Origin: Scatophagus argus
Taxonomy: Eukaryota > Chordata > Actinopteri > Scatophagidae
Length of the DNA: 64,000 bases
Direction of reading: 5' to 3'
Assembly (NCBI RefSeq): GCF_020382885.2
Contig: NC_058513.1
Coordinates: 7,076,774 to 7,140,773 of the forward strand
The notes below the pieces were generated by a model. It had not been told where the DNA came from, made no database searches, and saw only the letters and a program-made list of their open reading frames with translations. Numbering within the stretch: the first letter of the stretch is position 1; each line of letters begins with the position of its first letter. The position numbers and the translations under genes are program-made. Shown here piece after piece: positions 8,858-39,500 of this stretch.

Positions 8858-9458
8858 GTATCTTTCCGCAGGTATCTCTCCATCCAGATCTTCAAGTTGA
8901 ACTGTAGCCGGCTCTATGACCAACCCAATGTGTATTGTTGACATCTGCCTGTCATTCCTCTATGTACCGACTATGGGCGGGGTGGTTCTCCCTACGGGCC
9001 GAAATCGAACTGATAGGATAGTGATTCTCAACATCACATAAAAAAAGAATACATGAATGTTACAGCAGTTCATTATAATTTTCAATACTATAAATTTCCT
9101 ATAAATTGTGAAATGTTAAAATCATATTGAGGTGGTAGCAAAAAGTGAAACTAAACAGTTGAGATTTTGTTTTGCTTATCTTTTTAGTAATGTCATTTCT
9201 CATGTTGCAAATTGCTTTCCTGCCTGTACAACATCCATTGCACGTCTGCCCGTCCTGGGTGAGGGATCCCTCCTCTGTTGCTCACCCTGAGGTTTCTTCC
9301 ATTTTTTCCTGTTAAAGGTTTTTCTGGGAGTTTTTCCTTAGTCGATGTGAGGGTCGAAGGGCAGAGGATGTTGCTGATGTTATGTTAAGCCCTTTGAGAC
9401 AAACTGCTTGTAAAAATGGGCTATACAAATAAAGTTGACTTGACTTGAGTTGACTCAT
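8813..9458 (+). mobile_element. Short insertion with a LINE-like 3' tail
   Basis: About 645 bp separate two halves of a sequence that is continuous elsewhere (compare 4,232-4,260). CAT lies at both ends. The 3' part, from about 9,226, resembles a common teleost non-LTR 3' UTR: a bulk motif around CTGGGTGAGGGATCCCTCC, then AATAAAG and an imperfect TTGACT tail. The 5' part contains a CT microsatellite and no recognisable coding. Copy B carries it at 20,443-21,083. The family is uncertain (L2/Rex1 type is my guess). Confidence 0.6.
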
Positions 9459-11333: not shown

Positions 11334-11693
11334 TTCGAGTGTGTTTTATGTAGGCCAAGATGGAGGGTAAATTCTTGCATCTTTCTTTCTTTCTTGTGAC
11401 AGAATATATTTAGATAGCTAATTTGAAAAATATCCTGCATGTCATAATAATATTTTTACTTATTTATCTATCTGGACATTAATGAAGACAGTGTGAAAAA
11501 GCGCCAAAGACCAATTAGTAATCTGTTGGGGCTGCAGGACTCTTAATCTGGATTATCATGCAGCGCGCGGCCATGCTTTTCATAATCAGTTTGGTGAGCT
11601 GTGATTCCCGGCAGCGCATGACACATCTGGATACAGGCAGTCGTTTAAGGGGAGGTGTGTGTGTGTGTGTGTGTGTGTGTGACTGCGTGTGTG

Positions 11694-11725
<32 letters not shown>

Positions 11726-14330
11726 AGAGGGAGAGAGAGACGACGCTGAGACTCCGCGGTCCTTGCGCTCACCAGTGGAGAGGTAACTAGCAGAAGATTA
11801 ATACTGAGCGGCGGGTATAGACACATTTCCATGCACAGAACTATTTTGGGGGTAAGTATAGATTCTTCATCTCCATTTATGTTGCGAAATTCTCTTTCTT
11901 TAAAGCATAGCCATCGCTGAATACATTTGCAAAAGTAAGAGGGGGAGTCTGCAAGAAGATCACAGGTCTGGTGCGCATAAAAGACATTTTATCTCTCAGG
12001 GCGCAGCGACAGCGGTTTGCCACATTTTCTCAGTCACGTTAACTCCTGCTTCATGTCTGCATGCCACACTTGTCTCGTGGATATGATTCGTCTTGCAGCA
12101 GAAGGAGTTCAGCTCTGACTGGAGGTGTTGCACTGAATTTCGTGAACTGACATTTTTTATTATTATTTGTTTTGCACACAAGTTGGGCCCCACATGTTGT
12201 GGCCTACTGTGTGTATTTCTGTTTTATAATATGACCTTATTGTGTTGGGCTTGGGCTACATATTTTGTAGTCATTTAGTTGTGACGGCAGAAATTTGTTA
12301 TTATATTTAAAAGGGAAGCTCTTAGCAGTTACTATTTATAATCATCATATATGAGGATAAAGGCTCCTGCACGCTGTGATTTACAGTAGCGCCATCATTT
12401 CTGTCCAAAGGTATCAGATATTTTCATCAGATCATATTAATATACAGTAAAGTATAGGAGCTCATTCACATTAGTAACATAAGTGTCACTGCCTCACTTG
12501 GTCTGGTGTGACCAATAAATCTTTCGATGGCTAATGCGAGATAACATAAGTCACATGCTAGTATACTTTTATTACACTTTTTCTACTGGTCTTTGTGTTT
12601 CAGTATTGACCATCAAACAGTATATATGCATATATAGTATGCATAAAAACATAAAAAAGTAGGTGAAGGTGTTTTACTCTCATATCCACAGCAGTTATAA
12701 TGACGACTGAAGCTGCGTCTGTTCCTCTGCTAACGTACTGCCAAACTACGCACAAACGTCAGTAGTACTTTCATCATGGAGTGACATGATTATAAGATTA
12801 TGCTAAGTATGAGCTCGTCACGGTCGGCACGGTGGTGCAGTGGTTAGCGCTGTCGCCTCATAGCAACAGGGTTGCACGTTCGAATCTGGACTTTAGCTTT
12901 TTCACTGTGAAGACTGTACTGGAATAAGAAATGCCTGCAGACTGCATACTCAGTACTTTAAAATAGGGCTGAACAAGGGACTGAATTATTTTACAGCCCA
13001 CATGCCAAGTGATTACTGTGAGAAATCAAAATCTGCTCTCAAACTCAAGCATCTAAATTTGTGTCCTCGCTTATTTATTCGGATTTTAAAGGGACACTTA
13101 AGGACTGTGACGTTACTAATAACTACAATCAACACTAGGTCACGGAGATGAGCTAGCTTGGAAACACACCCCACCAAATGTTACTTTAGCCCATGATCCA
13201 GCTGTGTGATTTGTCAGATTTCACAGTAAAACCCTGCATTAATGTTAATCTGAGATTGTTACTGTCCGTGAATGATCAGAGGGTGGCACACAAACACACA
13301 CACACCCCTACACACACAGTCAGAGTCACAGACATGCTGTCAGGCTTATCTGTCAGATTGATCGACACATTGCAGTGCACACACAGCAGATGTGTGCTGT
13401 GTTTCGTGCTACAGCTGTCACATGATCACTCTGTATGTCACACACAACCTTATGGAACAGTTAACAACTCCTTACATTTCTTTTATAGGAGTTTATCACT
13501 TAGCATCACTCTTGTTAGGGACCTCAAATGTATGGCTGGCCCCATTACAACAAGCAAATACAGATTAAAAAATATTTATATGTAGCATATTAACAGGATT
13601 ATTCTCCTTGGTTTTCTTCAGCCGTTCATGTTTGTTCAGCTTTGTGTGATCTCTGGGGTTGTCACCCCTAAGTTCTTCCAGCACCACAGCTAAACCAAAA
13701 CCCAAAGGGTGGTGTTTGGGAGAGTGAACAGAGATCACACAAACACTTTGCCATAATCTGTGGATTTTTGGAGGCGATATCTTTAATATGATATTTCTCT
13801 TAAGAAAACACTTTTTAAAAAGGACTATTAATTTCTTCATACCAGCACAGACCTGATATATGACTACTTTATCTCATATCATATTTTTAACATTGCTAGC
13901 AATGTGGCTCATAACAATATTGCTCTGTTGATCACTTTCCATGAAATTTGCCATACTCATTCATGAATTAACATTATGTTTTAGAAATTTGCTGATTAAC
14001 ATATAGGGAACCCAAAGTGCTGCAGAACCTGAGCACAATCTCACAGAGATGCAAGTATCACCATAGAGTCTTAGTTTTATTTGATTATGTGTAGCCAGAC
14101 CAGCATAATTTCATTTTAATTCCTCTTCACAATTTTTCTCCCAAGGTCAACAGATGAACCTTGACTTGTTGATTTGATCCCATCACTTTCAAAACACGCT
14201 GCGCTGATTTGAGTTTCAACACTGGTCTGTCCTGTTAATAGAGTGAAAAAAAAAAAAAAAACATTGTAAGCTTAACGGTAGTTTAGTCTGCCTAATATGA
14301 GTGTATATGTGTGTGTGTTTTCTGGCACCA

Positions 14331-14717
14331 TGCAGGTTCTGGTCCCTCATTCACACCCTCTGCTTCAGCATCCTCTATGATCTTGTTGTGGTTCCGAGTG
14401 ATGGCAAATACCCAACTGTCTCCTAACTCTGTCAGGTCCGGGATGGAGTATTCAGGTACCACCTCTAAGCCCCTGGGGTCCCTGGCAGTCAGGCCGACCC
14501 GGAGGTGGCCACACCAGCCCAGCTCCTTATCCTCAATCTCTATGAGAAATATCTCACCGGGCTTCAGAGGTTGTTTGCTGAAACACACTCCATTTGCAAA
14601 GCTCTCCACTCTGGTGGCCTGCGTTCCAGAGTGGTCCAGTCTGACGTTGGTACCATGGATGGGATGGAATTCCATGAACTGGTCAGGAAAGGGTTCCATT
14701 TTCACTTCTGTTTGCAC
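14331..14717 (-). pseudogene. NEURL2-like first exon, copy B
   Basis: The translation is identical to copy A over the recognisable region, with ATG at 14,717. Downstream on the minus strand lies the rest of copy B followed by copy A, neither holding a NEURL2 second exon. This copy can only be part of a gene if it splices across more than 14 kb. It is best read as an amplified exon fragment with an intact frame. Confidence 0.7.
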
Positions 14718-17430
14718 AAACTCAAGCTTTCACTTCTGGCTCAGGGAACAGAAATTACCAGCAAAAAGAAATTCCCTGCTGCCAAAATCACAACGAACAG
14801 ATATACATTTTGTAATCCTTTTCAGGCAAACAGTCTTGGGTGACATGTGGTCATAGCAGAAACACAACAACTTGTGCAGACAAGATCTCTGCTCTGCCTA
14901 TCTGTGGGCCACTCAGGGAAGCTTCTGGTAGAGGGCTATTTTTGAACAGCTGCATATGTCAACAGATGGCAAGGTATGTGTGTGCGTGTGTGTGTGTGTA
15001 GTGTGTGTGCACGCGTGTGTGCGTGGAGGAGGGTGGCCAACATGCACATGCCTATAGTCACTCACATGCTCCAGACATACATATATATGTATGTATATAT
15101 ATGTAGTGTATAATAGCTGCGTAATTATCATAATACCATATCTCAGTGAGATATGTTAAACAGCAGGCATTTCATAGCTGCATTCTAAATATAGCAGTGC
15201 CATGCAAATACAGTCTGGATTTCATTCTTATGTAAAACATCAATTAAAGTAATATATGAGATAAGAAGAAGGTCTGTGAAGATTATAATGTGATAATAGA
15301 ATTATAAAAGAAGAATATGAAGGGGAATTATATTTAAAGCTCTTAGCAGTTACTATTTATAATCATCATATATTAGAATAAAGGCTCTTGCGCCATCATT
15401 TCTGTCCAAAGGTATCAGGTATTTTCATCAGATCATGTTAATATACAGTAAAGTATAGAAGCTCATTCACATTAGTAACATAAGTGTCACTGCCTCACTT
15501 GGTCTGGTGTGACCAATAAATCTTTCGATGGCTAATGCGAGATAACATAAGTCACATGCTAGTATACTTTTATTACACTTTTTCTACTGGTCTTTGTGTT
15601 TCAGTATTGACCATCAAACAGTATATATGCATATATAGTATGCAGTCAAAGGAAATTCTGTAAACCTGTAAAACTCTGACCGTTTGTCTAGTGAAGGAAA
15701 AGCCTGGAAAGAAGGAAGATGGAAATAAATAAAGGCGAGGTTGTTACATTCCATCACTGACTAATTACTGGAATTTTACAGTCTATGTAAATGTAGTCAT
15801 TGTTAAGTTGTGGTTGTACTTCAGATAAGAGCTGACACGAGTTCTTTCAAAGTTTCCACTACTGATAGTTCAGTTCTGTCATAAACTCACCGCAGACACA
15901 TCTCACCTCACGCTTCCTCCCTGCTGAGATTTAAGCAGCAGCTGGAGGTGTTTTACTCTCATATCCACAGCAGTTATAATGACGACTGAAGCTGCTTCTG
16001 TTCCTCTGCTAACGTACTGCCAAGCTACGCACAAGCGTCAGTAGTACTTTCATCATGGAGTGACAAGAATATAAACTTATGCTAACTATGACCTAATCGC
16101 GGGCGGCACGGTGGTGCAGTGGTTAGCACTGGCGCCTCATAGCGACAGGGTTCCAGGATCGAACCCCGAGCCTTCTATGTGCAGTTTACATGTTCTCTCC
16201 GTGCCAGGACGGGTTTTCTCCGGGTACTCCGGTTCCCACAGGCCCAAAAACATGTACATGAGCGGGTTGCGTTACAAAAAAATCTCTTTTTATCAAGATA
16301 TAAGGTACACCTGTATAAATACCTGGGGCAATAAGCAGCTGCAGCTCTAGTGGTTATTGGGCTAATTGAGTAGTGTTAAAACTTCATTTAACACAATCTG
16401 CATAGTCTGAAATTTCTGCATATTTCGGCCCGTCTTAATTAACACTGTATAATTACTATGTGAGGCTTTCTCAGTGAGGATTTAGAACACTATTGTATAT
16501 AACATTAACAACACATAAAATGTCAAAATTGCAGATCCGTATACTGTGCAGACATACAAACATATCCCCAACAGGTAATCATCCAAGAGCAACAGATTAT
16601 AAAATGAGTAAACTGTACACACACTGGACATTAATAATAAGGCCTATCTGTTCATTCAGGCAGTGATGGATGGGAGTTATTATCTCTCACCCCAAATGAA
16701 GCCTGCACACAACTCTTCCCCGTTCTTCATAATGTCAGTTCTAGGGCTTCGAGTGTGTTTTATGTCAGTGCGCGTGCGTCGATACGTGTGCAGCCTGTTA
16801 CAGACGCTCCCGATCTTTCTCACTGTTTTCTACTATTTTATTATTATTTCGCGACTCCTTTTACTTTCTTTTTACTCTGGACTACATTGTTTTCTACCTA
16901 CCACACACCAGGAAAGTTGTGGCGATGCAACTCCTCGCTGCCCGCATTGTTTACACTCGGGATCAGCTGATGGACCTGAAGCCGGCCACCTCTCCAGGGA
17001 AAACACCGAGAGTAATCCCTGCGGAATGCTGGATTAAAACTCACAGCGGATACAGGGGAAATAAAAAGTTACGGAGAAAGAGGGAAGCTTTGAAACAGCG
17101 GAGGCTTATGACTAGGAAGTTTAAGCCGTGTCTCCCCTCTATCGTCGTGGGAAATGTGAGGTCACTCGGGAATGGACGAACTGACGGCATTGTCGCAGAG
17201 TCAGAGGGAATACCGGGAGTGCAGTTTGATGTGCTTTACGGAGACATGGCTGCACCAGGACATACCTGATGACAATGTGACAGTAACGGGCTTCCATACG
17301 GTCCGTGCGGACAGAGACTGCGCTACCAGCGGTAAGCACAAAGGGGGGGGGGGGGGCTCGTTAACAACCGGTGGTGTAATCCAGCTCACATCACGGTGAA
17401 GGAGCGCATCTGCAGCCCGGATGTGGAACT

Positions 17431-18951
17431 GTGTGCCGTTGGACTACGTCCATATTACCTGCCCAGGGAGTTTTCACATGTTGTCATGGTGACTGTTTAT
17501 GTCCCCCCTCTGCAAACCCCAGCAGGACACGTGACACTATTCACTCTGCAATAGCCCGGATACAGACTCAGCACCCGAGTGCATTCATTGCAATCTCGGG
17601 TGATTTCAACCATACTAACCTGGACAAAACACTCCCCACTTTCACTCAGTTTGTGAACTGTCCTACCAGAGAGGGAAGAACAGTAGATCTGCTGTATGCT
17701 AATGCAAGGGATTGTTACAGCTCTTCCCCCCTCCCCCCACTAGGCAGGTCAGATCACAACCTGATCCACCTCTCCCCCTGCTATGTGCCTCTCGTAAAGC
17801 GTCTGCCCGCAACTTCAAGGACTATGAGGAGATGGACAGACGAGGCCAATGAGACACTCCAGGGCTGTTTTGAGGTGACAGACTGGCAGGCACTCTGTGA
17901 GCCCCACGGCCAGGACATTGATGGGCTCACTGAGTGCATCACTGCCTACATAAACTTCTGTGTGGACACCATTGTCCCAACCACAACGGTAAAGTGTTAC
18001 CCCAACAACAAGCCGTGGGTAACCAAGGACATCAAAGCCATCCTCAATGACAAGAAGAGGGCTTTCAGAGCAGGCAATAGGGAGGAGGTGAGAGCTATTC
18101 AGTGCACCCTGAGAATAAAAATCAGGGAGGCAAAGGAGAGGTACCGGAGGCAGCTGGAGTGGAAACTCCAGCAGAACAGCACGAGAGAGGTGTGGAGTGG
18201 CACGAGGACCATCACAGGTTACGGGCCAAACAGCCGAGGAGTTGATGGCAGTGTGGAACGGGCGAATGAGCTGAATCAGTTTTTTAACAGATTCGACACA
18301 AGGACCCCAATTCACGCTTCAAAGGACTCCTCAGCAGTACGGTTGCGGCAACCAGCCACTCCAGCCTCTCTCCCTCCACCCACATTTCATCTGGATGGCC
18401 TCGCTCACACCTCGTCCCCAGAAGCCTGGGTGGACCACTCTCACCTGGGTACCACATGCACTCCTCCCCCACCCATCACCCCAACGATGACCTTCACAGC
18501 TGATCAGGTGAGAAGACAGCTGCAGAGACTCCGTGCAGGCAAAGCTGCAGGCCCAGTGTTGTGTGAGCCCCAGGGTCCTGAAAGCCTGTGCCCCCCAGCT
18601 AAGCGGAGTACTCCATCATGTCTTCAACCTGAGTCTGAGTCTCCAGAGGGTCCCCGTGGTATGGAAGACGTCATGCCTCGTTCCTGTCCCGAAGAGGCCG
18701 CGTCCCAGCGACCCCAAGGACTACAGGCCTGTGGCCCTGACGTCACACATCATGAAGACCCTGGAAAGACTCGTCCTGGAACAGCTCAGGCCCATGGTCC
18801 AACCACTTCAGGACCCCCTTCAGTTCACCTACCAGCCCCGCCTTGGAGTGGACGATGCCATCATCTACCTGCTGAACAGAGTCTACACGCACCCGGACAA
18901 GCCGGCAAGCACTGTGAGAATCACGTTCTTCGATTTCTCGAGTGCGTTTGA
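17431..18951 (+). pseudogene. L2 endonuclease and linker frame, copy B
   Basis: A longer open frame than in copy A (506 codons) because the extra base near 6,801 of copy A is absent. It contains SGDFN and GRSDHNL of the endonuclease and the linker up to RAGKAAGP. It then runs out of frame over the RT domain, giving a meaningless C-terminus. Its start is internal, because the domain begins upstream in another frame. Confidence 0.7.
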
Positions 18952-19882
18952 CACCATCAGGCCGGCTCTGCTGGCTGAGAAGCTGACAGCGATGCAGGTG
19001 GAGGCCCCACTGGTGTCCTGGATCGCAGACTATCTGACGGGCAGACCACAGTATGTACGCCTGAAGTGCTGCCTGTCAGATGAAGTGATCAGCAACACCG
19101 GGGCTCCACAGGGGACTGTCCTCTCTCCCTTCCTCTTCACAATCTACACCACAGACTTTATGCACTGCACAGAGTCCTGCCATCTTCAGAAATTTTCTGA
19201 TGACTCCGCAGTGGTTGGGTGTATTACTGGGGGGGATGAGAGAGAGTACAGGACGGTAGTGGACAACTTTGTCACATGGAGCGGGAAAAACCACCTACAG
19301 CTCAATGTGACAAAGACCAAGGAACTGGTGGTGGACCTGAGGAGGACTAAGGCTCCAGTGACCCCTATCGACATAAAAGGGGACACTGTGGAGGTGGTGG
19401 AGGAGTACAAATACCTGGGGGTGTACTTAGACCACAAACTGGACTGGTGCAAGAACGTGGACATGGTCTACAGAAAGGGCCAGAGCCGCCTCTACTTTCT
19501 GAGGCGGCTGAGGTCCTTCAACATCTGCAGGACGATGCTGAGGATGTTCTACGAGTCGGTGGTGTCCAGTGCCATCACATATGCTGTTGCCTGCTGGGGC
19601 AGCTGCCTGAGGGTGAGGGACACCAACAGACTCGATAGAATCATCAAGAAGGCCAGCCATGTTGTGGGAGAGGAACTGGACTCTCTGACAGTGGTGTCTG
19701 AGAGGAGGATGTTGTCCAAAATAAGGACTATACTGGACTTTCCCTCTCACCCTTTCCACAATGTGCTGATCGGCTACAGGAGCTCATTCAGCAACAGGCT
19801 CATACTGCCACGATGTACCACAGAGCGACACAGGAAATCATTCCTGCCTGTCGCCATCAAACTGTTAAACTCAGCACTGTGA
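18533..19882 (+). CDS. L2 reverse transcriptase open frame, copy B
   Basis: The same 449-codon RT frame as at 6,904-8,253. The differences I could see are an Asp-to-Glu at residue 157 and an Ala-to-Val near residue 380. All catalytic motifs are retained (FFDFSSAFD, TGAPQGTVLSP, FSDD). As in copy A, it is cut off from its endonuclease by a frameshift. Confidence 0.75.
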   Translation: MQAKLQAQCCVSPRVLKACAPQLSGVLHHVFNLSLSLQRVPVVWKTSCLVPVPKRPRPSDPKDYRPVALTSHIMKTLERLVLEQLRPMVQPLQDPLQFTYQPRLGVDDAIIYLLNRVYTHPDKPASTVRITFFDFSSAFDTIRPALLAEKLTAMQVEAPLVSWIADYLTGRPQYVRLKCCLSDEVISNTGAPQGTVLSPFLFTIYTTDFMHCTESCHLQKFSDDSAVVGCITGGDEREYRTVVDNFVTWSGKNHLQLNVTKTKELVVDLRRTKAPVTPIDIKGDTVEVVEEYKYLGVYLDHKLDWCKNVDMVYRKGQSRLYFLRRLRSFNICRTMLRMFYESVVSSAITYAVACWGSCLRVRDTNRLDRIIKKASHVVGEELDSLTVVSERRMLSKIRTILDFPSHPFHNVLIGYRSSFSNRLILPRCTTERHRKSFLPVAIKLLNSAL

Positions 19883-20442
19883 CGGACACACTCACTGATA
19901 TATACAATGTACATATTGGCTTTTTTTTACACATGTACATACCTGTATTTTAAATTTTCTTAACAAATTTGAATACAGTTTTTGTAAATACCTGTACTTG
20001 AGATTTTAGATTTAGATTTTATCTTTATTGTTTATCCTATTTTTTATACTCTGCACTTTTCTCCCTTCTTGGTCGGGAATACTGCATGTGCAATGTCTGT
20101 AAAAACAAGAATTTACTTCCAGGGATAAATAAAGGAATTCTGATTCTGATTCTGATGTAGGCCAAGATGGAGGGAGGGAGGGTAAATTCTTGCATCTTTC
20201 TTTCTTTCTTGTGACAGAATATATTTAGATAGCTAATTTGAAAAATATCCTGCATGTCATAATAATGTTTTTACTTATTTATCTATTTGGACATTAATGA
20301 AGACAGTGTGAAAGTGCCAAGTGCCAAAGACCAATTAGTAACAAGTCTATGTAAATGTAGTCATTGTTAAGTTGTGGTTGTACTTCAGAGCTGACACGAG
20401 TTCTTTCAAAGTTTCCACTACTGATAGTTCAGTTCTGTCATC

Positions 20443-21083
20443 TCTTGTGTCTCTCCCTCCCTCTCTCTCTCTCTCTCTCTCTGTATCTTTCCGCAGGTAT
20501 CTCTCCATCCAGATCTTCAAGTTGAACTGTAGCCGGCTCTATGACCAACCCAATGTGTATTGTTGACATCTGCCTGTCATTCCTCTATGTACCGACTATG
20601 GGCGGGGTGGTTCTCCCTACGGGCCGAAATCGAACTGATAGGATAGTGATTCTCAACATCACATAAAAAAAGAATACATGAATGTTACAGCAGTTCATTA
20701 TAATTTTCAATACTATAAATTTCCTATAAATTGTGAAATGTTAAAATCATATTGAGGTGGTAGCAAAAAGTGAAACTAAACAGTTGAGATTTTGTTTTGC
20801 TTATCTTTTTAGTAATGTCATTTCTCATGTTGCAAATTGCTTTCCTGCCTGTACAACATCCATTGCACGTCTGCCCGTCCTGGGTGAGGGATCCCTCCTC
20901 TGTTGCTCACCCTGAGGTTTCTTCCATTTTTTCCTGTTAAAGGTTTTTCTGGGAGTTTTTCCTTAGTCGATGTGAGGGTCGAAGGGCAGAGGATGTTGCT
21001 GATGTTATGTTAAGCCCTTTGAGACAAACTGCTTGTAAAAATGGGCTATACAAATAAAGTTGACTTGACTTGAGTTGACTCAT
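20443..21083 (+). mobile_element. Short insertion with a LINE-like 3' tail, copy B
   Basis: The counterpart of 8,813-9,458 in copy A, with the same CAT flanks and a shorter CT run. It is absent from copy C, where the 5.2 kb deletion removed it. Confidence 0.6.
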
Positions 21084-21515
21084 AAACTCACCGCAGACAC
21101 ATCTCACCTCACGCTTCCTCCCTGCTGAGATTTAAGCAGCAGCTGAAGGTGTTTTACTCTCATATCCACAGCAGTTATAATGACGACTGAAGCTGCTTCT
21201 GTTCCTCTGCTAACGTACTGCCAAGCTACGCACAAGCGTCAGTAGTACTTTCATCATGGAGTGACATGAATATAAGACTATGCTAAGTATGAGCTCGTCA
21301 CGGTGGGCACGGCGCAGTGGTTAGCACTGTCGCCTCATAGCAACAGGATTCCGCGTTCGAATCCCCGGCAGGTTTGCTATGTTGGGTTTGGGGTTTGCAT
21401 TGTTCTCCCCAGTGCCTGAGTGGGTTTCCTCCGGATAATCCGGGGCTTTCTCCCACAATACCGATAACATGCACAGAAGATGGAAAACATGAAAAAAGTA
21501 GTAGAGTGTTGTCTG

Positions 21516-21552
<37 letters not shown>

Positions 21553-22254
21553 GGGGGTGTGTGTGTGTGTGAATGTTTTGTGTGAGAGAGAGGGAGAGAG
21601 ATACGACGCTGAGACTCCGCGGTCCTTGCGCTCACCAGTGGAGAGGTAACTACTGTGTGTATTTCTGTTTTATAATATGACCTTATTGTGTTGGGCTTGG
21701 GCTACATATTTTGTAGTCGTTTAATTGTGACGGCAGAAATTTGTTATTATATTTAAAAGGGAAGCTCTTAGCAGTTACTATTTATAATCATCATATATGA
21801 GGATAAAGGCTCCTGCACGCTGTGATTTACAGTAGCGCCATCATTTCTGTCCAAAGGTATCAGATATTTTCATCAGATCATATTAATATACAGTAAAGTA
21901 TAGGAGCTCATTCACATTAGTAACATAAGTGTCACTGCCTCACTTGGTCTGGTGTGACCAATAAATCTTTCGATGGCTAATGCGAGATAACATAAGTCAC
22001 ATGCTAGTATACTTTTATTACACTTTTTCTACTGGTCTTTGTGTTTCAGTATTGACCATCAAACAGTATATATGCATATATAGTATGCATAAAAACATCA
22101 AAAAGTCTCTTTTTATCAAGATATAAGGTACACCTGTCAATAAGCAGCTGCAGCTCTAGTGGTCATTGGGCTAATTGAGTAGTGTTAAAACTTCATTTAA
22201 CACAATCTGCATAGTCTGAAATTTCTGCATATTTCGGCCCGTCTTAATTAACAC

Positions 22255-22964
22255 GGGTGGACAGCATTAAGTTCCTGGGCATCCACATCTCCTCTGACCT
22301 CTCCTGGTCAGTGAACACCTCACACCTGGTGAAAAAGGCCCAACAGCGGCTTTTCTTTCTCAGGAAGTTGAAACGGACTGGACTGTCTACTCAGCTGCTC
22401 GTGAACTTTTGCAGAGCCACAATAGAAAGTATCCTGTGTCTCAGTGTGACCGTGTGGTATGGCAGTTGCACAGCGCAGGACAGGAAAGATTTAGCCCGGG
22501 TAGTGAGGACAGCACAGGGGATTGTGGGCTGCAGTCTACCAGATCTGGACTCAGTTTACACTGCCCGAGTCCAGAAGAAGGCAAGACGCATTGCCACAGA
22601 CCCCACCCACCCGGGCAACAAACTGTTTGTACCGCTTCCATCAGGAAAGCGGTACAGGAACATTAAAACCAGCACCAACAGACTCAGGGACAGCTTCTTC
22701 CCCAGAGCTGTTAAAGCAATAACCCCCCTACAGTGAAACACTCATACACATAGTCTGGCACTAAGTGCACTTTGTTTTTTATCTTCCTCACTCTGTATTT
22801 TGTACTTTGCATTTTATATTTTTGTATTTTTTTTTTCTAAGGTGTGCAATTTAAATTTTTTCTATTTATAAGTGTGTTTTGAAGCTGAGAATCTGCACAA
22901 AATTTCGTTATGCTTGCATAATGACAATAAAGACTCTTGAATCTTGAATCCTGAATCTTGAATC
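22255..22964 (+). mobile_element. 5'-truncated L2 LINE, copy B
   Basis: The counterpart of 10,624-11,333, with the open frame at 22,257-22,736. It shares the same missing 3' UTR segment and the same flanks, confirming that the element was in the unit before A and B duplicated. Confidence 0.85.
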
Positions 22965-23283
22965 TTCGAGTGTGTTTTATGTAGGCCAAGATGGAGGGTA
23001 AATTCTTGCATCTTTCTTTCTTTCTTGTGACAGAATATATTTAGATAGCTAATTTGAAAAATATCCTGCATGTCATAATAATATTTTTACTTATTTATCT
23101 ATCTGGACATTAATGAAGACAGTGTGAAAAAGCGCCAAAGACCAATTAGTAATCTGTTGGGGCTGCAGGACTCTTAATCTGGATTATCATGCAGCGCGCG
23201 GCCATGCTTTTCATAATCAGTTTGGTGAGCTGTGATTCCCGGCAGCGCATGACACATCTGGATACAGGCAGTCGTTTAAGGGG

Positions 23284-23317
<34 letters not shown>

Positions 23318-25939
23318 CTGCGTGTGAGAGAGAGAGAGAGAGAGAGAGACGACGCTGAGACTCCGCGGTCCTTGCGCTCACCAGTGGAGAGGTAACTAGC
23401 AGAAGATTAATACTGAGCGGCGGGTATAGACACATTTCCATGCACAGAACTATTTTGGGGGTAAGTATAGATTCTTCATCTCCATTTATGTTGCGAAATT
23501 CTCTTTCTTTAAAGCATAGCCATCGCTGAATACATTTGCAAAAGTAAGAGGGGGAGTCTGCAAGAAGATCACAGGTCTGGTGCGCATAAAAGACATTTTA
23601 TCTCTCAGGGCGCAGCGACAGCGGTTTGCCACATTTTCTCAGTCACGTTAACTCCTGCTTCATGTCTGCATGCCACACTTGTCTCGTGGATATGATTCGT
23701 CCTGCAGCAGAAGGAGTTCAGCTCTGACTGGAGGTGTTGCACTGAATTTCGTGAACTGACATTTTTTATTATTATTTGTTTTGCACACAAGTTGGGCCCC
23801 ACATGTTGTGGCCTACTGTGTGTATTTCTGTTTTATAATATGACCTTATTGTGTTGGGCTTGGGCTACATATTTTGTAGTCGTTTAGTTGTGACGGCAGA
23901 AATTTGTTATTATATTTAAAAGGGAAGCTCTTAGCAGTTACTATTTATAATCATCATATATGAGGATAAAGGCTCCTGCACGCTGTGATTTACAGTAGCG
24001 CCATCATTTCTGTCCAAAGGTATCAGATATTTTCATCAGATCATATTAATATACAGTAAAGTATAGGAGCTCATTCACATTAGTAACATAAGTGTCACTG
24101 CCTCACTTGGTCTGGTGTGACCAATAAATCTTTCGATGGCTAATGCGAGATAACATAAGTCACATGCTAGTATACTTTTATTACACTTTTTCTACTGGTC
24201 TTTGTGTTTCAGTATTGACCATCAAACAGTATATATGCATATATAGTATGCATAAAAACATAAAAAAGTAGGTGAAGGTGTTTTACTCTCATATCCACAG
24301 CAGTTATAATGACGACTGAAGCTGCGTCTGTTCCTCTGCTAACGTACTGCCAAACTACGCACAAACGTCAGTAGTACTTTCATCATGGAGTGACATGATT
24401 ATAAGATTATGCTAAGTATGAGCTCGTCACGGTCGGCACGGTGGTGCAGTGGTTAGCGCTGTCGCCTCATAGCAACAGGGTTGCACGTTCGAATCTGGAC
24501 TTTAGCTTTTTCACTGTGAAGACTGTACTGGAATAAGAAATGCCTGCAGACTGCATACTCAGTACTTTAAAATAGGGCTGAACAAGGGACTGAATTATTT
24601 TACAGCCCACATGCCAAGTGATTACTGTGAGAAATCAAAATCTGCTCTCAAACTCAAGCATCTAAATTTGTGTCCTCGCTTATTTATTCGGATTTTAAAG
24701 GGACACTTAAGGACTGTGACGTTACTAATAACTACAATCAACACTAGGTCACGGAGATGAGCTAGCTTGGAAACACACCCCACCAAATGTTACTTTAGCC
24801 CATGATCCAGCTGTGTGATTTGTCAGATTTCACAGTAAAACCCTGCATTAATGTTAATCTGAGATTGTTACTGTCCGTGAATGATCAGAGGGTGGCACAC
24901 AAACACACACACACCCCTACACACACAGTCAGAGTCACAGACATGCTGTCAGGCTTATCTGTCAGATTGATCGACACATTGCAGTGCACACACAGCAGAT
25001 GTGTGCTGTGTTTCGTGCTACAGCTGTCACATGATCACTCTGTATGTCACACACAACCTTATGGAACAGTTAACAACTCCTTACATTTCTTTTATAGGAG
25101 TTTATCACTTAGCATCACTCTTGTTAGGGACCTCAAATGTATGGCTGGCCCCATTACAACAAGCAAATACAGATTAAAAAATATTTATATGTAGCATATT
25201 AACAGGATTATTCTCCTTGGTTTTCTTCAGCCGTTCATGTTTGTTCAGCTTTGTGTGATCTCTGGGGTTGTCACCCCTAAGTTCTTCCAGCACCACAGCT
25301 AAACCAAAACCCAAAGGGTGGTGTTTGGGAGAGTGAACAGAGATCACACAAACACTTTGCCATAATCTGTGGATTTTTGGAGGCGATATCTTTAATATGA
25401 TATTTCTCTTAAGAAAACACTTTTTAAAAAGGACTATTAATTTCTTCATACCAGCACAGACCTGATATATGACTACTTTATCTCATATCATATTTTTAAC
25501 ATTGCTAGCAATGTGGCTCATAACAATATTGCTCTGTTGATCACTTTCCATGAAATTTGCCATACTCATTCATGAATTAACATTATGTTTTAGAAATTTG
25601 CTGATTAACATATAGGGAACCCAAAGTGCTGCAGAACCTGAGCACAATCTCACAGAGATGCAAGTATCACCATAGAGTCTTAGTTTTATTTGATTATGTG
25701 TAGCCAGACCAGCATAATTTCATTTTAATTCCTCTTCACAATTTTTCTCCCAAGGTCAACAGATGAACCTTGACTTGTTGATTTGATCCCATCACTTTCA
25801 AAACACGCTGCGCTGATTTGAGTTTCAACACTGGTCTGTCCTGTTAATAGAGTGAAAAAAAAAAAAAAAACATTGTTAGCTTAACGGTAGTTTAGTCTGC
25901 CTAATATGAGTGTATATGTGTGTGTGTTTTCTGGCACCA

Positions 25940-26326
25940 TGCAGGTTCTGGTCCCTCATTCACACCCTCTGCTTCAGCATCCTCTATGATCTTGTTGTGG
26001 TTCCGAGTGATGGCAAATACCCAACTGTCTCCTAACTCTGTCAGGTCCGGGATGGAGTATTCAGGTACCACCTCTAAGCCCCTGGGGTCCCTGGCAGTCA
26101 GGCCGACCCGGAGGTGGCCACACCAGCCCAGCTCCTTATCCTCAATCTCTATGAGAAATATCTCACCGGGCTTCAGAGGTTGTTTGCTGAAACACACTCC
26201 ATTTGCAAAGCTCTCCACTCTGGTGGCCTGCGTTCCAGAGTGGTCCAGTCTGACGTTGGTACCATGGATGGGATGGAATTCCATGAACTGGTCAGGAAAG
26301 GGTTCCATTTTCACTTCTGTTTGCAC
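25940..26326 (-). pseudogene. NEURL2-like first exon, copy C
   Basis: This is the third intact copy, with ATG at 26,326 and the same protein sequence as A and B. One base differs just upstream of the start codon region (about 26,414). As with copy B, no second exon follows within more than 25 kb on the minus strand, so it is likely a non-functional duplicate. Confidence 0.7.
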
Positions 26327-28653
26327 AAACTCAAGCTTTCACTTCTGGCTCAGGGAACAGAAATTACCAGCAAAAAGAAATTCCCTGCTGCCAAAATCAC
26401 AACGAACAGATATAAATTTTGTAATCCTTTTCAGGCAAACAGTCTTGGGTGACATGTGGTCATAGCAGAAACACAACAACTTGTGCAGACAAGATCTCTG
26501 CTCTGCCTATCTGTGGGCCACTCAGGGAAGCTTCTGGTAGAGGGCTATTTTTGAACAGCTGCATATGTCAACAGATGGCAAGGTATGTGTGTGCGTGTGT
26601 GTGTGTGTAGTGTGTGTGCACGCGTGTGTGCGTGGAGGGGGGTGGCCAACATGCACATGCCTATAGTCACTCACATGCTCCAGACATACATATATATGTA
26701 TGTATATATATGTAGTGTATAATAGCTGCGTAATTATCATAATACCATATCTCAGTGAGATATGTTAAACAGCAGGCATTTCATAGCTGCATTCTAAATA
26801 TAGCAGTGCCATGCAAATACAGTCTGGATTTCATTCTTATGTAAAACATCAATTAAAGTAATATATGAGATAAGAAGAAGGTCTGTGAAGATTATAATGT
26901 GATAATAGAATTATAAAAGAAGAATATGAAGGGGAATTATATTTAAAGCTCTTAGCAGTTACTATTTATAATCATCATATATTAGAATAAAGGCTCTTGC
27001 GCCATCATTTCTGTCCAAAGGTATCAGGTATTTTCATCAGATCATGTTAATATACAGTAAAGTATAGGAGCTCATTCACATTAGTAACATAAGTGTCACT
27101 GCCTCACTTGGTCTGGTGTGACCAATAAATCTTTCGATGGCTAATGCGAGATAACATAAGTCACATGCTAGTATACTTTTATTACACTTTTTCTACTGGT
27201 CTTTGTGTTTCAGTATTGACCATCAAACAGTATATATGCATATATAGTATGCAGTCAAAGGAAATTCTGTAAACCTGTAAAACTCTGACCGTTTGTCTAG
27301 TGAAGGAAAAGCCTGGAAAGAAGGAAGATGGAAATAAATAAAGGCGAGGTTGTTACATTCCATCACTGACTAATTACTGGAATTTTACAGTCTATGTAAA
27401 TGTAGTCATTGTTAAGTTGTGGTTGTACTTCAGATAAGAGCTGACACGAGTTCTTTCAAAGTTTCCACTACTGATAGTTCAGTTCTGTCATAAACTCACC
27501 GCAGACACATCTCACCTCACGCTTCCTCCCTGCTGAGATTTAAGCAGCAGCTGAAGGTGTTTTACTCTCATATCCACAGCAGTTATAATGACGACTGAAG
27601 CTGCTTCTGTTCCTCTGCTAACGTACTGCCAAGCTACGCACAAGCGTCAGTAGTACTTTCATCATGGAGTGACATGAATATAAGACTATGCTAAGTATGA
27701 GCTCGTCACGGTGGGCACGGCGCAGTGGTTAGCACTGTCGCCTCATAGCAACAGGATTCCGCGTTCGAATCCCCGGCAGGTTTGCTATGTTGGGTTTGGG
27801 GTTTGCATTGTTCTCCCCAGTGCCTGAGTGGGTTTCCTCCGGATAATCCGGGGCTTTCTCCCACAATACCGATAACATGCACAGAAGATGGAAAACATGA
27901 AAAAAGTAGTAGAGTGTTGTCTGTCGTGTGTGTGTGTGTGTGTGTGTGGGGGTGTGTGTGTGTGTGTGTGAATGTTTTGTGTGAGAGAGAGGGAGAGAGA
28001 TACGACGCTGAGACTCCGCGGTCCTTGCGCTCACCAGTGGAGAGGTAACTACTGTGTGTATTTCTGTTTTATAATATGACCTTATTGTGTTGGGCTTGGG
28101 CTACATATTTTGTAGTCGTTTAATTGTGACGGCAGAAATTTGTTATTATATTTAAAAGGGAAGCTCTTAGCAGTTACTATTTATAATCATCATATATGAG
28201 GATAAAGGCTCCTGCACGCTGTGATTTACAGTAGCGCCATCATTTCTGTCCAAAGGTATCAGATATTTTCATCAGATCATATTAATATACAGTAAAGTAT
28301 AGGAGCTCATTCACATTAGTAACATAAGTGTCACTGCCTCACTTGGTCTGGTGTGACCAATAAATCTTTCGATGGCTAATGCGAGATAACATAAGTCACA
28401 TGCTAGTATACTTTTATTACACTTTTTCTACTGGTCTTTGTGTTTCAGTATTGACCATCAAACAGTATATATGCATATATAGTATGCATAAAAACATCAA
28501 AAAGTCTCTTTTTATCAAGATATAAGGTACACCTGTCAATAAGCAGCTGCAGCTCTAGTGGTCATTGGGCTAATTGAGTAGTGTTAAAACTTCATTTAAC
28601 ACAATCTGCATAGTCTGAAATTTCTGCATATTTCGGCCCGTCTTAATTAACAC

Positions 28654-29430
28654 GGGTGGACAGCATTAAGTTCCTGGGCATCCACATCTCCTCTGACCTC
28701 TCCTGGTCAGTGAACACCTCACACCTGGTGAAAAAGGCCCAACAGCGGCTTTTCTTTCTCAGGAAGTTGAAACGGACTGGACTGTCTACTCAGCTGCTCG
28801 TGAACTTTTACAGAGCCACAATAGAAAGCATCCTGTGTCTCAGTGTGACTGTGTGGTATGGCAGTTGCACAGCGCAGGACAGGAAAGATTTAGCCCGGGT
28901 AGTGAGGACAGCACAGGGGATTGTGGGCTGCAGTCTACCAGATCTGGACTCAGTTTACACTGCCCGAGTCCAGAAGAAGGCAAGACGCATTGCCACAGAC
29001 CCCACCCACCCGGGCAACAAACTGTTTGTACCGCTTCCATCAGGAAAGCGGTACAGGAACATTAAAACCAGCACCAACAGACTCAGGGACAGCTTCTTCC
29101 CCAGAGCTGTTAAAGCAATAACCCCCCTACAGTGAAACACTCACGTCCCACCCCCATACAGGACTTCACACATACACCCTCCCCCGTCTATCTGCATACA
29201 CACACACAGCATACACATAGTCTGGCACTAAGTGCACTTTGTTTTTATCTACCTCATTTTGTATTATCTACCTCATTTTGTATTTTGTATTTTATATTTT
29301 TATATATATATATTTTTTTTTTCTTAAGTGTGCAATTTTAATTTTCTCCTATTTATAAGTGTGTTTTTAAGCTGAGAATCTGCACACAATTTCGTTATGC
29401 TTGCATAATGACAATAAAGACTCTTGAATC
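28654..29430 (+). mobile_element. 5'-truncated L2 LINE at the array/msrb1 junction, copy C
   Basis: It starts at the same point as in A and B but differs from about 28,810 on (TTTTACAG for TTTTGCAG, then AAGCATCC for AAGTATCC). It also keeps the complete 3' UTR, including the CCCACCCCCATACAGGAC segment missing from A and B. Its tail runs into single-copy DNA near msrb1, not into TTCGAGTG. The right part may thus derive from a different L2 copy, joined to the unit by recombination within the element. Confidence 0.8.
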
Positions 29431-29960
29431 TACAGCTGGGCCATGGAGAGAGTCTGAGCTCCTGTTGGCTACTGAAACAACTAACATTCTTAATTAATGT
29501 AAGACAACAAACAAATACAGTGCATGTTCATATGAAGTAGGACTCTGCACGTGCAGCAGTGAAAACAGGCAGGCAGGGCGGACTGAGCACTTAAATTGCT
29601 TAACTGTGGAGCTCAGACTTCTGTAGAGGAACAGATGTGATCTGGAGGGATGAGACCGCCATCTAGAGGTCAAACTAAGGAGCATCAACTACTCTAAGGA
29701 AACTTCATCACTGTCATGACCAATGGTGGAAAACAAAGTTAGGTCCTCATACTAGTCAAAATAACTTTATCACACTGTACAAACACTTGGTTAACAGTTT
29801 CTTGCTATCACATTATTGTGACTTCAGTGCACAGAACATACGGCTACATGTACCTTCTGGAATATTATGTATTAAGAATTACATTGATATGTATGTTGAA
29901 TAAGGTATTCTAGGACTGTAATATTTTCGTAAAGGAGTATTTGCAGAGGTGTGGTAATGT
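29431..29960. other. Single-copy DNA downstream of msrb1
   Basis: About 530 bp between the L2 tail and the msrb1 SECIS. No coding or repeat was recognised. It may include the distal msrb1 3' UTR; I saw no canonical AATAAA on the minus strand here. Confidence 0.4.
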
Positions 29961-29971
29961 CACTGTGTCAC

Positions 29972-30055
29972 AGGCAGGTCAAAGATTCTTCAGTGGACAG
30001 GGCGTCCCTCTCAGGCTTTTTTCCTGTCCACGTCACCCACTGAGCCGACCTGTTC
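29972..30055 (-). promoter_or_regulatory. SECIS element of msrb1 3' UTR
   Basis: On the minus strand the RNA can fold into a selenocysteine insertion hairpin. GUGGACAGG pairs perfectly with CCUGUCCAC nine bases long. A UGA (30,033-30,035) lies just before the 5' arm and a second UGA (29,990-29,992) just after the 3' arm, as in the tandem G.A quartet of SECIS elements. The apical loop begins with an A run, supplying the conserved adenines. A basal helix CAGGUC/GACCUG (30,047-30,052 with 29,975-29,980) closes it. It lies about 60 nt after the stop codon of msrb1. SBP2 would bind here to recode the in-frame UGA. Confidence 0.85.
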
Positions 30056-30114
30056 ACGGGTCCCGGGCTGAGCCGCAGATACAGCAGCAGGACTGAGGAG
30101 TCATATCTCACTCA

Positions 30115-30984
30115 TTACTGTTTGTCCTTCCCTACAACAGAAAGAAAAAACAAACAAACTTAAAGTCACCCTGCAAGGATGTCAAGTCAGAACTAGAAAT
30201 ACTGCCTTAAGGTTGTAAACCTCCGCCAACCTCAAGTTGCAATTTACATCCATGTCTGCTGTCTGTCTTCAAATTAGTCACACTTATGTACTTCAAATCC
30301 TGAATCATGAATGCTTCACATACATCTTTACATACTTCTGGATCAAAATACACTATATCGTCAAAAATATTGGGACATGCTTCTTTATTACTGAATTCAA
30401 GTGTATTATGCACAAATGTCCAAAATCTTGTGGAAAGCCTTCCCAGACTTCCCAGAAGAGTGAAAACTGTTATAGCTGCAAAGCTGTCTATGTATTTATA
30501 ATGTTATTAAAGTCCCTGTTGGTGTCTCAGTACTCCATATAGCATACTGCCCAATCAAAACTGTCCTCAGTAATCACCTCCCCATGCTTCACTCACATCT
30601 GTGGTAATCTTACCTTTAGCGGGGACAAACTTAAGTGAGTGGCTGAAAATTCAAAACCGTGAGACTCCTTCTTCTGGGCCGTCGTTTACAAACTCATGGC
30701 CCAACCCATTGCCACACTTGCCACAAAGAACCTGTACACATGAGACACAATCACATCAGCTTCCTGTGTCACATCCTGAGAGGACAGATGTTTGAACTGT
30801 GCGAAAGATGCAGCAGCAGTAAAACAAATGAGGCTCTGGACCTTGTAGGCAGTGAGAGTCTCCATCATCTTGGTGACACTGTCTTCTCTGATGGTGTCAG
30901 TGAAAGCAGGCCAAGGGGATGAGTTGGGGAACTTGGACCGACTGGAGAAGAGTGGATGGTTACACTGGGAGCACACATAAATAC
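30115..30984 (-). CDS. Selenoprotein methionine-R-sulfoxide reductase B1, exons 2-4 (5' partial)
   Basis: This gene repairs oxidised methionine (R-sulfoxide) in proteins, in the cytosol and nucleus. Three coding exons: 30,984-30,842, 30,731-30,614 and 30,131-30,115, all with GT-AG junctions and matching phases (1, 0, 1). Visible are the zinc-site cysteine pairs YVCSQC and LCGKCG, the core [18 protein letters not shown], and SRF-Sec-IFS. Selenocysteine is encoded by TGA at 30,653-30,651 and is the expected catalytic residue. The protein ends AKGKDKQ. The split glycine at the first acceptor shows that a first exon of about 19 codons is missing. It was not found in the single-copy island, in copy D, or up to tex2. 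An ORF caller would stop at the TGA. Confidence 0.9.
30351..30485 (+). mobile_element. Tc1-like fragment (MITE-like) in the last msrb1 intron
   Basis: It starts with CACTATATCGTCAAAAATATT after a TA, matching a Tc1 terminal repeat. It then jumps to a segment resembling the end of the transposase region (CTTGTGGAAAGCCTTCCCAG, AGCTGCAAAG). It is internally deleted and lacks the right terminal repeat. It lies in the intron between exons 3 and 4, in the opposite orientation to msrb1. Confidence 0.7.
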
Positions 30985-31624
30985 CTGCAGGGGGACAGCT
31001 ACTTTTAAAAATATTGCTTTACTTCGTACCTAGGCTAGCACAAGCATTTTTCAATATGAAACAAAACTGTTATTATTATTTCCTGCTCCCGTGTGAAGTG
31101 ATCCTGGAGGTTTAAGCAGGAGCTCCGCCCACTGCTGTTATCGGTCTCAACACTAGATGTCAGTGTTTGCCAACAGGACAACTTATATTGGACCAAAGTT
31201 CAGGCAAATATTCAGCGGAAAGCTGACCCTAAAACAGATTTATATTGTGTTATGCCTAGGATTTTGGATTTTAAAATTAATATATACTGTTTGGGACATA
31301 ACTTCATTCACGTTAATTTCACAAAAACCCAAAGTGAGATGAGAGTTGATGTGAAAATTCAAATATCTCTAAAAAACTCTAAAAAAGTACCTGTGTGACC
31401 CCAACAGATCCTGGACTGCTGCATGCAAACACCTAAAACCACAGAGATGCTGTAGTCTGATGTGATGCCAGCTTGTATCTAGTGATACAATCTGATTTAC
31501 TTGTTACGTGATACAGAAGACATACAATAGACACGGTTCACTGCAGCTCATAAAAATGAAACAGTAGTGTTTGATTTTAGTCTCAGCTTCAAAGTAGTAT
31601 GCAAAACAAGATAGGTATACTCTT
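30985..31624. other. Single-copy DNA upstream of msrb1 exon 2
   Basis: About 640 bp expected to be msrb1 intron 1. I searched the minus strand for the first exon (a start followed by the FFGGE-type motif) and saw none before the array resumes at about 31,625. Confidence 0.5.
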
Positions 31625-36512: not shown

Positions 36513-36542
36513 TGCCTTGGCTATGCAATGTAAAGTCAAGAA

Positions 36543-39500
36543 ATGGCAGACAGTGGAACAAATGGGGAAAGAACAAGCGGGGATAAAGGAAGTGGCAGGC
36601 CTCTCCAGCAGTCCCACAGTCCAGCTTTTGGCATGTCCCCAGTCAGCACCCCATCCCTTGGGACCAAGAGGCATCTCCCTCGAGGGATTGTGATCCAGCT
36701 GACTGGTACAGAGGGAGAGTGGGACAGTCTGGATGACACTGAGCTCATCTTCTCTCTTGACCACGATGAAGACTGCCCCTCTATATCCCTCTCCAAGGAG
36801 AGGCAGCTTTCTGTTGAGGATGACAAGTGTTTGCAGTCCCAAGCTTTCCATGTTCCTCTTTCTCCCTCGTCTCCTGGCTCTCTGGGAAACTGCTCTATTG
36901 TTGGGCCCAGCTTCCTCTCCCCAGGCCCTTCCTCACCTACCCATCGACCCCTTGCAAGCCTGGTCAAGTCTCTCTCCACTGAGCTGGAGCTCAAGGAAGG
37001 TTCCTCCCTCAGACCTAAGCCCCTTCTCAGCCTTGTAAAGTCAATCTCCACAGAGATCTCCCGCTCAGAGCCTGAAGTGTCGCAGTCAAAATCAGACTCT
37101 CGCCTCAACCTCCACCTATGGAAGCAGCTTACCCAATCAAAAACCCGCAGCAATGGGGACTCTCGCACTGCACCCCCTTCTCCTAGCTCACTCTCTCCTA
37201 GTGGGGAGGGTCTGAAAGGGGGTTTCTTCAAAATGGAGTTGGAAGACACCAAGAGGAAGCTCTCAGAGGCTGTACATGAGCCTTTGAGCAGCATGTTCAG
37301 CAAAATCATGAGAGAGGAGACAGCAGGCAGCCCCAAGCACCATAATAAGACCCAGTGGGGTCATCAGGTCAGCTCCAGAGGTTGTGAAGGTAGCACAGAC
37401 ACGGTTCTTTCAGAGTCTCCTGTGAGGAACACTAAGAAAATAGATGCTGATGTTTTACCTGTGTTTGACTGGCCTTCTGTTAGATATCTGAGAAGAAGCC
37501 ACCGTAGTCCCTGCCCTGTGCATCACCAAAAACAGTACAGAGATGAGGAGCTGGAAGTGTGTACAGATGGTGACTTGATGCAAGTATTAGCAATTGAAAA
37601 TCACGGGTCATTGAGGAGATCACCTGCTGGTCCCCAGGCCCTTGCACCAGCCTTGGTTAGGACTTCTCCTCCTTCTCGGCCCCCTCATCCTCTACCGTGC
37701 ATGAGTTTATTCTGTGTGGCAGTGTTGTCCTATGGCTATTTCATCCTACCTCTCAGTCCGTACTTCTCTGGCCTGGCTCTGGGGTTGGCATTGGGCTTCT
37801 TACTAGGATTGTTGCTCATCAGGATGGGTTCCTCGAGGTCGCGCTGCTCAGATATGCCATACAGACCACCACAGACTCTGCTGGGAGCGGGGATTCTGAC
37901 AGGTATCACTGTCACCACTGAGCCTGACACCCTCAAGGTAAATGGTTGAGTCATAAAGGAGGAAATTTTATTTTCTATTTTCAGCCGCCTCAGTCTCACT
38001 CTAATACTCCCACATTTCTCAACATGTCTTCGAATTACTTCTTTTTCCGCTCAACCCTTGTCTCCTAAGAAAAACCTTGCCATTTTGGGAATTATGCGTG
38101 GGGTTCTTGCAGACAGATCAATATTACTCAGGCTTCTGTCAGTGAAATAGGTCAGCAACACGTGGTGTTCACACCTTTTGGTGGGTGCTTAAGCATCAGA
38201 GCATCCATGTGATTGGCACCTATGGTTGCATAGTTACACTATGTTGCCAAAAGTATTCACTCACCCATCCAAATAATTGAATTCAGAAGTTCCAATCACT
38301 TCCATGGCCACAGATGTACAAAATCAAGCACCTAGGCATGTAGACTGCTTCTACAAACATTTGTGAAATTTCCTTGTTACAAAATATTCCACAGTCAGCT
38401 GTCAGTGGTATTATAACAGTGGAAGTGAAGCGATTGGGAATGACAGCAACTCAGCCAAGAAGTGACAGTCCATGTAAAATGATAAAGCGGGGTCAGCAGA
38501 TGCTGAGGTGCATAGTGTGGAGAGGTCGCCAACTTTCTTCAGAGACAATTGCTACAGACCTCTAAATTTCATGCTTTCAGATTAGTTCAAGAATAGTGCA
38601 TAGAGAGCTTCATTGAATGGGTTTCCATGGCCAAGCAGCTGCATCCAAGCCATACATCACCAATTGCAATGCAAAGCGTCAGATGCAGTGGTGTAAAGCA
38701 CGTCACCACTGGACTCTAGTGCAGTGGAAACGCGTTCTCTGGAGTGATGAATCACACCTCTCCATCTGGCAATCTGATGGATGAATCTGGGTTTGCCAGG
38801 AGAACGGTACTTGTCTGACTGCATTGTGCCAAGTGTGAAGTTTGGTGGAGGAGAGAATATGGTGTGGTGTTGTTTTTCAGGAGCTGGGTTTGGCCCCTTA
38901 GTTCCAGTGAAAGGAACTCGGAATACTTCAGCATAACAAAACATTTTGGACCATTCTATCCTCTCAACTTTGTGGGAACAGTTTGGGGTTGGCCCCTTCC
39001 TGTTCCAACATGACTGCGCACCAGTGCACAAAGCAAGGTCTGTAAAGACATGGATGAGAGGTGTTGGTGTGGAAGAACTTGACTGGACAGAGTGCTGATT
39101 TCAACCCAATAGAACACGTTTGGGATGAATTAGAGCGAAGACTGCGAGCCAGGCCTTCTCGTCCAACATCAGTGTCTGACCTCACAAATGCGCTTCTGGA
39201 AGAATGGTCAAAAAATCCCTAAACCTCACTGCTAAACCTTGTGGAAAGCCTTCCCAGAAGAGCTTAAGCTGTTATAGCTGCAAAGGGTGGGCTAACTTCA
39301 TATTAAACCCTATGGATTAAGAATGGGATGTCATTTAAGTTCATATGCATGTAAAGGCAGATGAGCAAATACTTTAGACAATATAGTGTATATGGTCATT
39401 GTAAAAAAAGTGGTCATTGTTGGATTCTGCAAATAACAACTTCTGTGTGAATACCCTTTAGCAACAGCTTTTCTCCATTTCAGTGATGCTTAAACTGAAA

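What the first reader, a model, noticed from the sequence alone, without database searches (positions are those of the whole stretch)
29972..30984. msrb1 selenoprotein gene with in-frame TGA and a SECIS hairpin
Three exons read through a TGA at 30,653-30,651 into conserved residues and a proper stop. A hairpin with a 9 bp perfect stem flanked by UGA on both sides follows in the 3' UTR. Standard ORF callers would miss or truncate this gene. Family identity rests on the SSPWPAF, GLGHEF and SRF-Sec-IFS motifs.
Basis: partly seen in the sequence, partly recalled or inferred. Interest (0 to 1): 0.75.

Follow-up and report, generated by a model that had tools for sequence, protein, structure and literature searches.

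The report
Selenoprotein gene copy missing first exon
This is a recent extra copy of a well-known fish selenoprotein gene (msrb1) that still carries its special UGA codon and RNA hairpin but has lost the exon with the start codon, so it is most likely a dead copy of an intact gene elsewhere on the same chromosome.

Summary
In detail: three minus-strand exons with GT-AG joins, an in-frame TGA at 30653-30651, a TAA stop, and a SECIS-type hairpin (9 of 9 arm pairs, TGA/GA core, AA in the apical loop). The protein is MsrB1 (Pfam SelR 73 bits; best solved-structure matches are MSRB1). The interpretation needs correcting. The other msrb1 copies in this genome have four coding exons, and exon 1 (start codon, N-terminal cysteine) is absent here. 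A 99.4%-identical copy about 295 kb away on the same contig has all four. The two differ by a 253-bp stretch, missing from the window between 31076 and 31079, that holds the ATG, exon 1 and its donor. The complete copy lies near an hs3st-type exon, as human MSRB1 is listed next to HS3ST6; the window copy lies among ~11.6-kb repeats with truncated neuralized-like exons. Another contig carries two more msrb1 copies in tandem, both with four coding exons. The window locus is therefore most likely a young segmental-duplication pseudogene that keeps its Sec codon and SECIS by recency. Expression could not be tested. Ordinary biology; the useful lesson is that SECIS plus in-frame UGA does not prove an intact selenoprotein gene.

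The parts
30842..30984 (-). msrb1 coding exon 2 ((G)[47 protein letters not shown]); first CxxC and SSPWPAF
   Evidence: translation; Pfam SelR; identical in the second C21 copy
30614..30731 (-). msrb1 coding exon 3 with second CxxC and in-frame TGA
30651..30653 (-). in-frame TGA, the Sec codon; the second C21 copy and both C16 copies also have TGA there
30115..30131 (-). coding part of exon 4, stop TAA 30117-30115
29978..30056 (-). SECIS element; TGA 30035-30033, arms 30031-30023 / 30001-29993, A-rich apical loop with 3-pair mini-helix, TGA 29992-29990; 133 nt after the UGA in the spliced RNA
31076..31079 (.). deletion junction: 253 bp of the second copy (C21:6812604-6812856), holding exon 1 (C21:6812703-6812757), are absent; two bases 31077-31078 (TA) fill the junction
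29430..31594 (-). duplicated msrb1 block shared with C21:6810957-6813372 (2151 of 2163 aligned bases identical)

Best explanation
The locus is a recent duplicate of a fish msrb1 gene, carried with other local pieces into a repeat array, that then lost 253 bp including the ATG and exon 1. It keeps exons 2-4, the Sec UGA and the SECIS because too little time has passed for decay. A transcript from the kept upstream flank would meet two out-of-frame ATGs first and could begin in frame only at the MMET of exon 2, giving a C-terminal fragment without the N-terminal cysteine, the first CxxC and SSPWPAF. It is therefore most likely a non-functional pseudogene; the enzyme would come from the complete copies. 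Shown: the anatomy, the absence of exon 1, the complete second copy. Inferred: the order duplication-then-deletion, lack of function, lack of protein.
For: Exon 1 is not found in the window: best tblastn 16.9 bits with a human-like exon, 16.5 with the C16 exons, 15.8 with the C21 exon, against 47.0 bits in the second copy. Of 13 matches in the whole-genome protein search at E<=1, exon-1 matches are only at C21:6812695 (E 2e-5) and two C16 sites (E 0.16, 0.31). The second copy is colinear, 2151 of 2163 bases identical, but for the 253 bp. The three other msrb1 copies here have exon 1 and most mammalian MsrB1 genes have four exons (PMC3316567 passage), so absence is derived. The complete copy has an hs3st-type exon 16 kb away; human HS3ST6 and MSRB1 are listed side by side in a 16p13.3 deletion (PMC7170856 passage). 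ATG survey. MsrB1 activity depends on a resolving cysteine in the N-terminal part (PMC3889830 passages).
Against: No lesion other than the deletion is seen: 0 of 278 coding bases differ from the complete copy, and the window SECIS arm is fully Watson-Crick where the complete copy has one G-U. The sequence upstream of the deletion is retained. A new first exon or an assembly error cannot be excluded; no RNA or read data were available. A DNA search of the whole genome for the deleted piece did not complete. One paper's passage calls the MsrB1 resolving residue 'Cys41' (PMC11591284), not an N-terminal one; by the numbering of the 2kv1 alignment residue 41 is Ser.
Confidence: 0.85

Rival explanations
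1. A complete, working msrb1 gene, with exon 1 farther upstream or a newly recruited first exon.
For: Exons 2-4, UGA and SECIS are intact; upstream flank kept.
Against: No exon-1 match in the 64-kb window, and among the 13 genome matches none on C21 but that of the second copy (N stretches could not be searched); both flanks of exon 1 are here and joined directly; no in-frame ATG before MMET, and the frame above exon 2 is open only to 31018.
Confidence: 0.07
2. Assembly artefact: one locus placed twice, or the deletion is a consensus error or one allele.
For: 99.4% identity, repeats around both copies, and N between them: 6834556-6979999 and 7066774-7076773 read N in what I fetched.
Against: The copies have different sequence beyond both ends of the shared block, so they are not simply alleles; the junction is clean with a two-base filler.
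Confidence: 0.06
3. The UGA and hairpin are chance features and this is not a selenoprotein relative.
For: Rfam SECIS_1 is not called in the window at gathering score nor listed for 29850-30200 at E<=10; folding energy is not unusual (z -0.87).
Against: 0 of 20 simulated sequences gave a perfect arm of nine; the same core stands in the three other copies, with 4 of 12 pairs changed on both sides over four sequences (92 of 500 shuffles reach that one count, 3 to 5 of 500 the four other measures); TGA in 4 of 4 copies. Rfam also scores the two C16 elements below its gathering score (15.9 and 20.9 bits against 35).
Confidence: 0.01

Closest known systems
MSRB1 / MsrB1 (SelR, SelX), selenoprotein methionine-R-sulfoxide reductase
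   Same: SelR domain, two CxxC, SRF-Sec-IFS, exon phases as in the other copies, SECIS in the 3' UTR
   Different: No exon 1, so no start codon and no N-terminal cysteine
Selenoprotein pseudogenes with conserved Sec region (GPx1 of human and chimpanzee, SelW; PMC3316567 passages; its Table 2 also lists MsrB1 pseudogenes in human, chimpanzee and macaque)
   Same: Active-site region and, for GPx1, SECIS kept while the gene is disabled
   Different: Here introns are kept (a genomic duplicate) and the lesion is loss of exon 1, not a stop codon or a SECIS base change
MsrB1 copy-number gain in fish (MsrB1a/b in bony fishes, PMC3316567; five copies reported in Larimichthys crocea, PMC4383535; passages)
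   Same: More than one Sec-MsrB1 copy in one fish genome (here three with four coding exons plus one truncated)
   Different: Whether any of the croaker copies lacks exon 1 was not checked

Membership tests
MsrB1 selenoprotein gene | SelR domain sequence | tested here: met
   PF01641 73.4 bits against a cut-off of 24.9, profile 29-116 of 116; the first 28 profile positions are not matched (C written for Sec)
MsrB1 selenoprotein gene | In-frame UGA at the catalytic position | tested here: met
   SRF-TGA-IFS aligns with SRFCIFS of 2kv1 and SRFSIFS of 3mao; TGA in 4 of 4 copies
MsrB1 selenoprotein gene | SECIS in the 3' UTR | tested here: met
   Rfam SECIS_1 not reached, nor its gathering score for the two C16 elements; folding z -0.87
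MsrB1 selenoprotein gene | Start codon and first coding exon with the N-terminal cysteine | tested here: not met
   Not found in the window; deleted relative to the second copy
MsrB1 selenoprotein gene | Transcription and Sec-containing protein | not testable with these tools
Duplicated (non-processed) pseudogene | Introns kept, complete parent elsewhere, disabling lesion | tested here: met
Duplicated (non-processed) pseudogene | No functional product | not testable with these tools
   Inferred from the missing start only

The most novel reading that the evidence does not exclude
The truncated copy is still transcribed from its retained upstream flank and yields a SECIS-bearing RNA, or a Sec-containing C-terminal fragment, that competes for SECIS-binding factors or tunes its parent msrb1: a natural SECIS decoy born by exon-1 deletion.
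Probability: 0.04. Interest if true: 0.55.

Novelty: new member of a known kind. Interest (0 to 1): 0.2.

Why it matters
As biology it is ordinary: a young duplicate pseudogene of a well-known selenoprotein. Its use is as a warning and a test case: SECIS plus in-frame UGA plus intact downstream exons, the usual signature for rescuing selenoprotein genes that ORF callers miss, also passes disabled copies and could inflate selenoprotein counts in repeat-rich fish genomes. If transcribed, it would offer a natural SECIS-only decoy experiment.

Tried and rejected
Rfam on the whole window at gathering scores (0 matches) and on 29850-30200 at E<=10 (one snoRNA-model match at E 9.1) gave no SECIS; the C16 elements as controls scored 15.9 and 20.9 bits against a gathering score of 35. 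Folding energy did not separate the SECIS from shuffles: z -0.87, -0.53, -0.30 and +1.61 for the four copies. dN/dS: silent sites between the C21 and C16 copies are saturated (pS 0.80 and 0.84, pN 0.19 and 0.25), so only the low pN speaks for past constraint. Literature: selenoprotein + pseudogene + exon 1 + segmental duplication + fish held 0 papers with all five terms; msrb1 + pseudogene listed 9, of which I opened PMC3316567 and PMC4383535, passages only; msrb1a or msrb1b listed 5, no further one opened. That the 253 bp are an insertion in the second copy was rejected because the C16 copies also have exon 1. The TAA listed inside the C16 B exon-3 match lies in the intron before the acceptor (read).

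Full report
What is there. On the minus strand the window holds three coding exons, 30984-30842, 30731-30614 and 30131-30115, with GT-AG introns, an in-frame TGA at 30653-30651 and TAA at 30117-30115. The joined translation, with one G supplied for the split first codon, is [94 protein letters not shown]. With C in place of the TGA residue it matches Pfam SelR (73.4 bits, cut-off 24.9) and, among 21 solved-structure sequences listed, best the two MSRB1 entries 2kv1 and 3mao (E 6e-38 and 1e-36). The exon-2 donor (AAG|GTCCAG) looks weak by eye but is the same in the second copy.

SECIS. The hairpin has arms 30031-30023 and 30001-29993 (9 of 9 Watson-Crick), TGA before (30035-30033) and after (29992-29990), and an A-rich apical loop with a three-pair mini-helix in the predicted fold. 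A simple scan for this core found only this site with at most one mismatch on either strand of the window, and no perfect arm of nine or more in 20 simulated single-strand 64-kb sequences. The same core stands in the three other msrb1 copies of the genome. Over 12 named pairs and 4 sequences, 45 of 48 cells pair; sliding the partner by 1-3 columns drops this to 33-56%. Four pairs change on both sides; 92 of 500 shuffles reach that count, and 3 to 5 of 500 reach the four other measures. The structure was taken from the window fold, which favours it. The spliced UGA-to-SECIS distance is 133 nt, above the 51-111 base minimum quoted in PMC3316567 (passage). Against: Rfam SECIS_1 does not call it, though it also leaves the two C16 elements below its gathering score, and the folding energies are unremarkable in all four copies. 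That such a mini-helix marks a 'form 2' SECIS is recalled.

The genome search placed the window at C21:7076774-7140773 of a 570.7-Mb assembly in 48 contigs, found a second place with 391 of 391 identical bases at C21:6812127-6812517, and more distant matches on C16. The second copy is colinear with window 29430-31594: 1638 of 1647 bases identical on one side and 513 of 516 on the other, interrupted by 253 bp (C21:6812604-6812856) that the window lacks. Those 253 bp contain exon 1, C21:6812703-6812757, MSFCRFSGGEIYKDHFKPG (last codon split), with its ATG and GT donor. In the window the flanks are joined with a two-base filler. Exon 1 was sought in the whole window with human-like, C16 and C21 queries and not found. 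The genome-wide protein search lists 13 matches at E<=1, with exon-1 matches only at C21:6812695 and two C16 sites. A DNA search for the deleted piece did not complete.

Other copies. C16 carries two msrb1 copies in tandem in locus L006 (A from 3867, B from 6340), each with four coding exons, TGA at the Sec position and a SECIS-type hairpin. Between the C21 and C16 copies amino-acid-changing sites differ at 19% and 25% while silent sites are saturated, which fits constraint on the lineage before this duplication.

Setting. Exon 1 of the complete C21 copy lies 1.4 kb from an open 295-residue frame with a neuralized domain (C21:6814202-6815086; 148 of 149 profile positions), and its SECIS about 16 kb from an open frame (C21:6795191-6795727) of which a 50-residue piece matches heparan sulfate 3-O-sulfotransferases, best 3A1. 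That this is hs3st6 is not shown. In human the list HS3ST6, MSRB1, RPL3L, NDUFB10, RPS2, RNF151, NOXO1 is given for a 16p13.3 deletion in PMC7170856 (passage). A gene with a p47phox C-terminal domain (27.1 bits, cut-off 27) and an SH3 domain closest to NCF1 lies at window 56363-57578 minus; it could be noxo1 but that was not shown. So the complete copy probably holds the conserved place. The window copy is embedded in repeats: a unit of about 11.6 kb at 564-12203 and 12204-23812, with partial copies to 35298, holding reverse-transcriptase sequence (LINE-type by eye) and truncated neuralized frames, 3 in the window, each 100% identical to the query over 135 residues (the query was taken from one of them). 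Whether this is an assembly gap or withheld sequence I cannot tell, so the real distance and number of copies are open.

Mechanism. A local segmental duplication placed a 2.2-kb msrb1 block in the array; a later 253-bp deletion with a two-base filler, of the kind that end joining can leave, removed exon 1. The order is inferred. Without exon 1 the first ATGs of a run-through transcript are out of frame (5 and 37 codons), and the first in-frame one is MMET in exon 2. The fragment would lack the first CxxC, SSPWPAF and the N-terminal cysteine; MsrB1 activity depends on a resolving cysteine in the N-terminal part (PMC3889830 passages). That it is Cys4 is recalled; one passage names 'Cys41' (PMC11591284), but residue 41 is Ser in the 2kv1 alignment. 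The most likely state is a young pseudogene. Twelve differences in 2163 aligned bases mark its youth; 0 of 278 coding bases differ, which at this divergence says nothing about constraint.

Novelty. MsrB1, its fish duplicates, and selenoprotein pseudogenes with a preserved Sec region are in print (PMC3316567, PMC4383535; passages). This is a new member of a known kind.

Noticed in passing
window 2684-3088, 14325-14729, 25934-26338 (minus); C21:6814202-6815086: Three truncated copies of a neuralized-domain frame (neurl2-like by eye) in an ~11.6-kb repeat array, identical over 135 residues, and a longer 295-residue frame beside the complete msrb1; four short 24-residue matches lie at C21:6820320-6831530.
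   Followed up: partly
window 1-35298: Tandem units of about 11.6 kb, about 99% identical, with reverse-transcriptase sequence.
   Followed up: partly
L006 3867-7011 (C16:11959866-11963010): Two further msrb1 copies in tandem, both with four coding exons, TGA at the Sec position and SECIS-type hairpins.
   Followed up: yes
window 56363-57578 (minus): p47phox C-terminal and SH3 domains: an NCF1/NOXO1-like gene.
   Followed up: partly
window 36534-37946 (+): Open frame of 471 residues that looks like part of TEX2 by eye; no Pfam match at E<=0.001.
   Followed up: no
C21:6834556-6979999 and 7066774-7076773: Reads N, the second stretch up to the base before the window starts; gap or withheld, not known.
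   Followed up: partly
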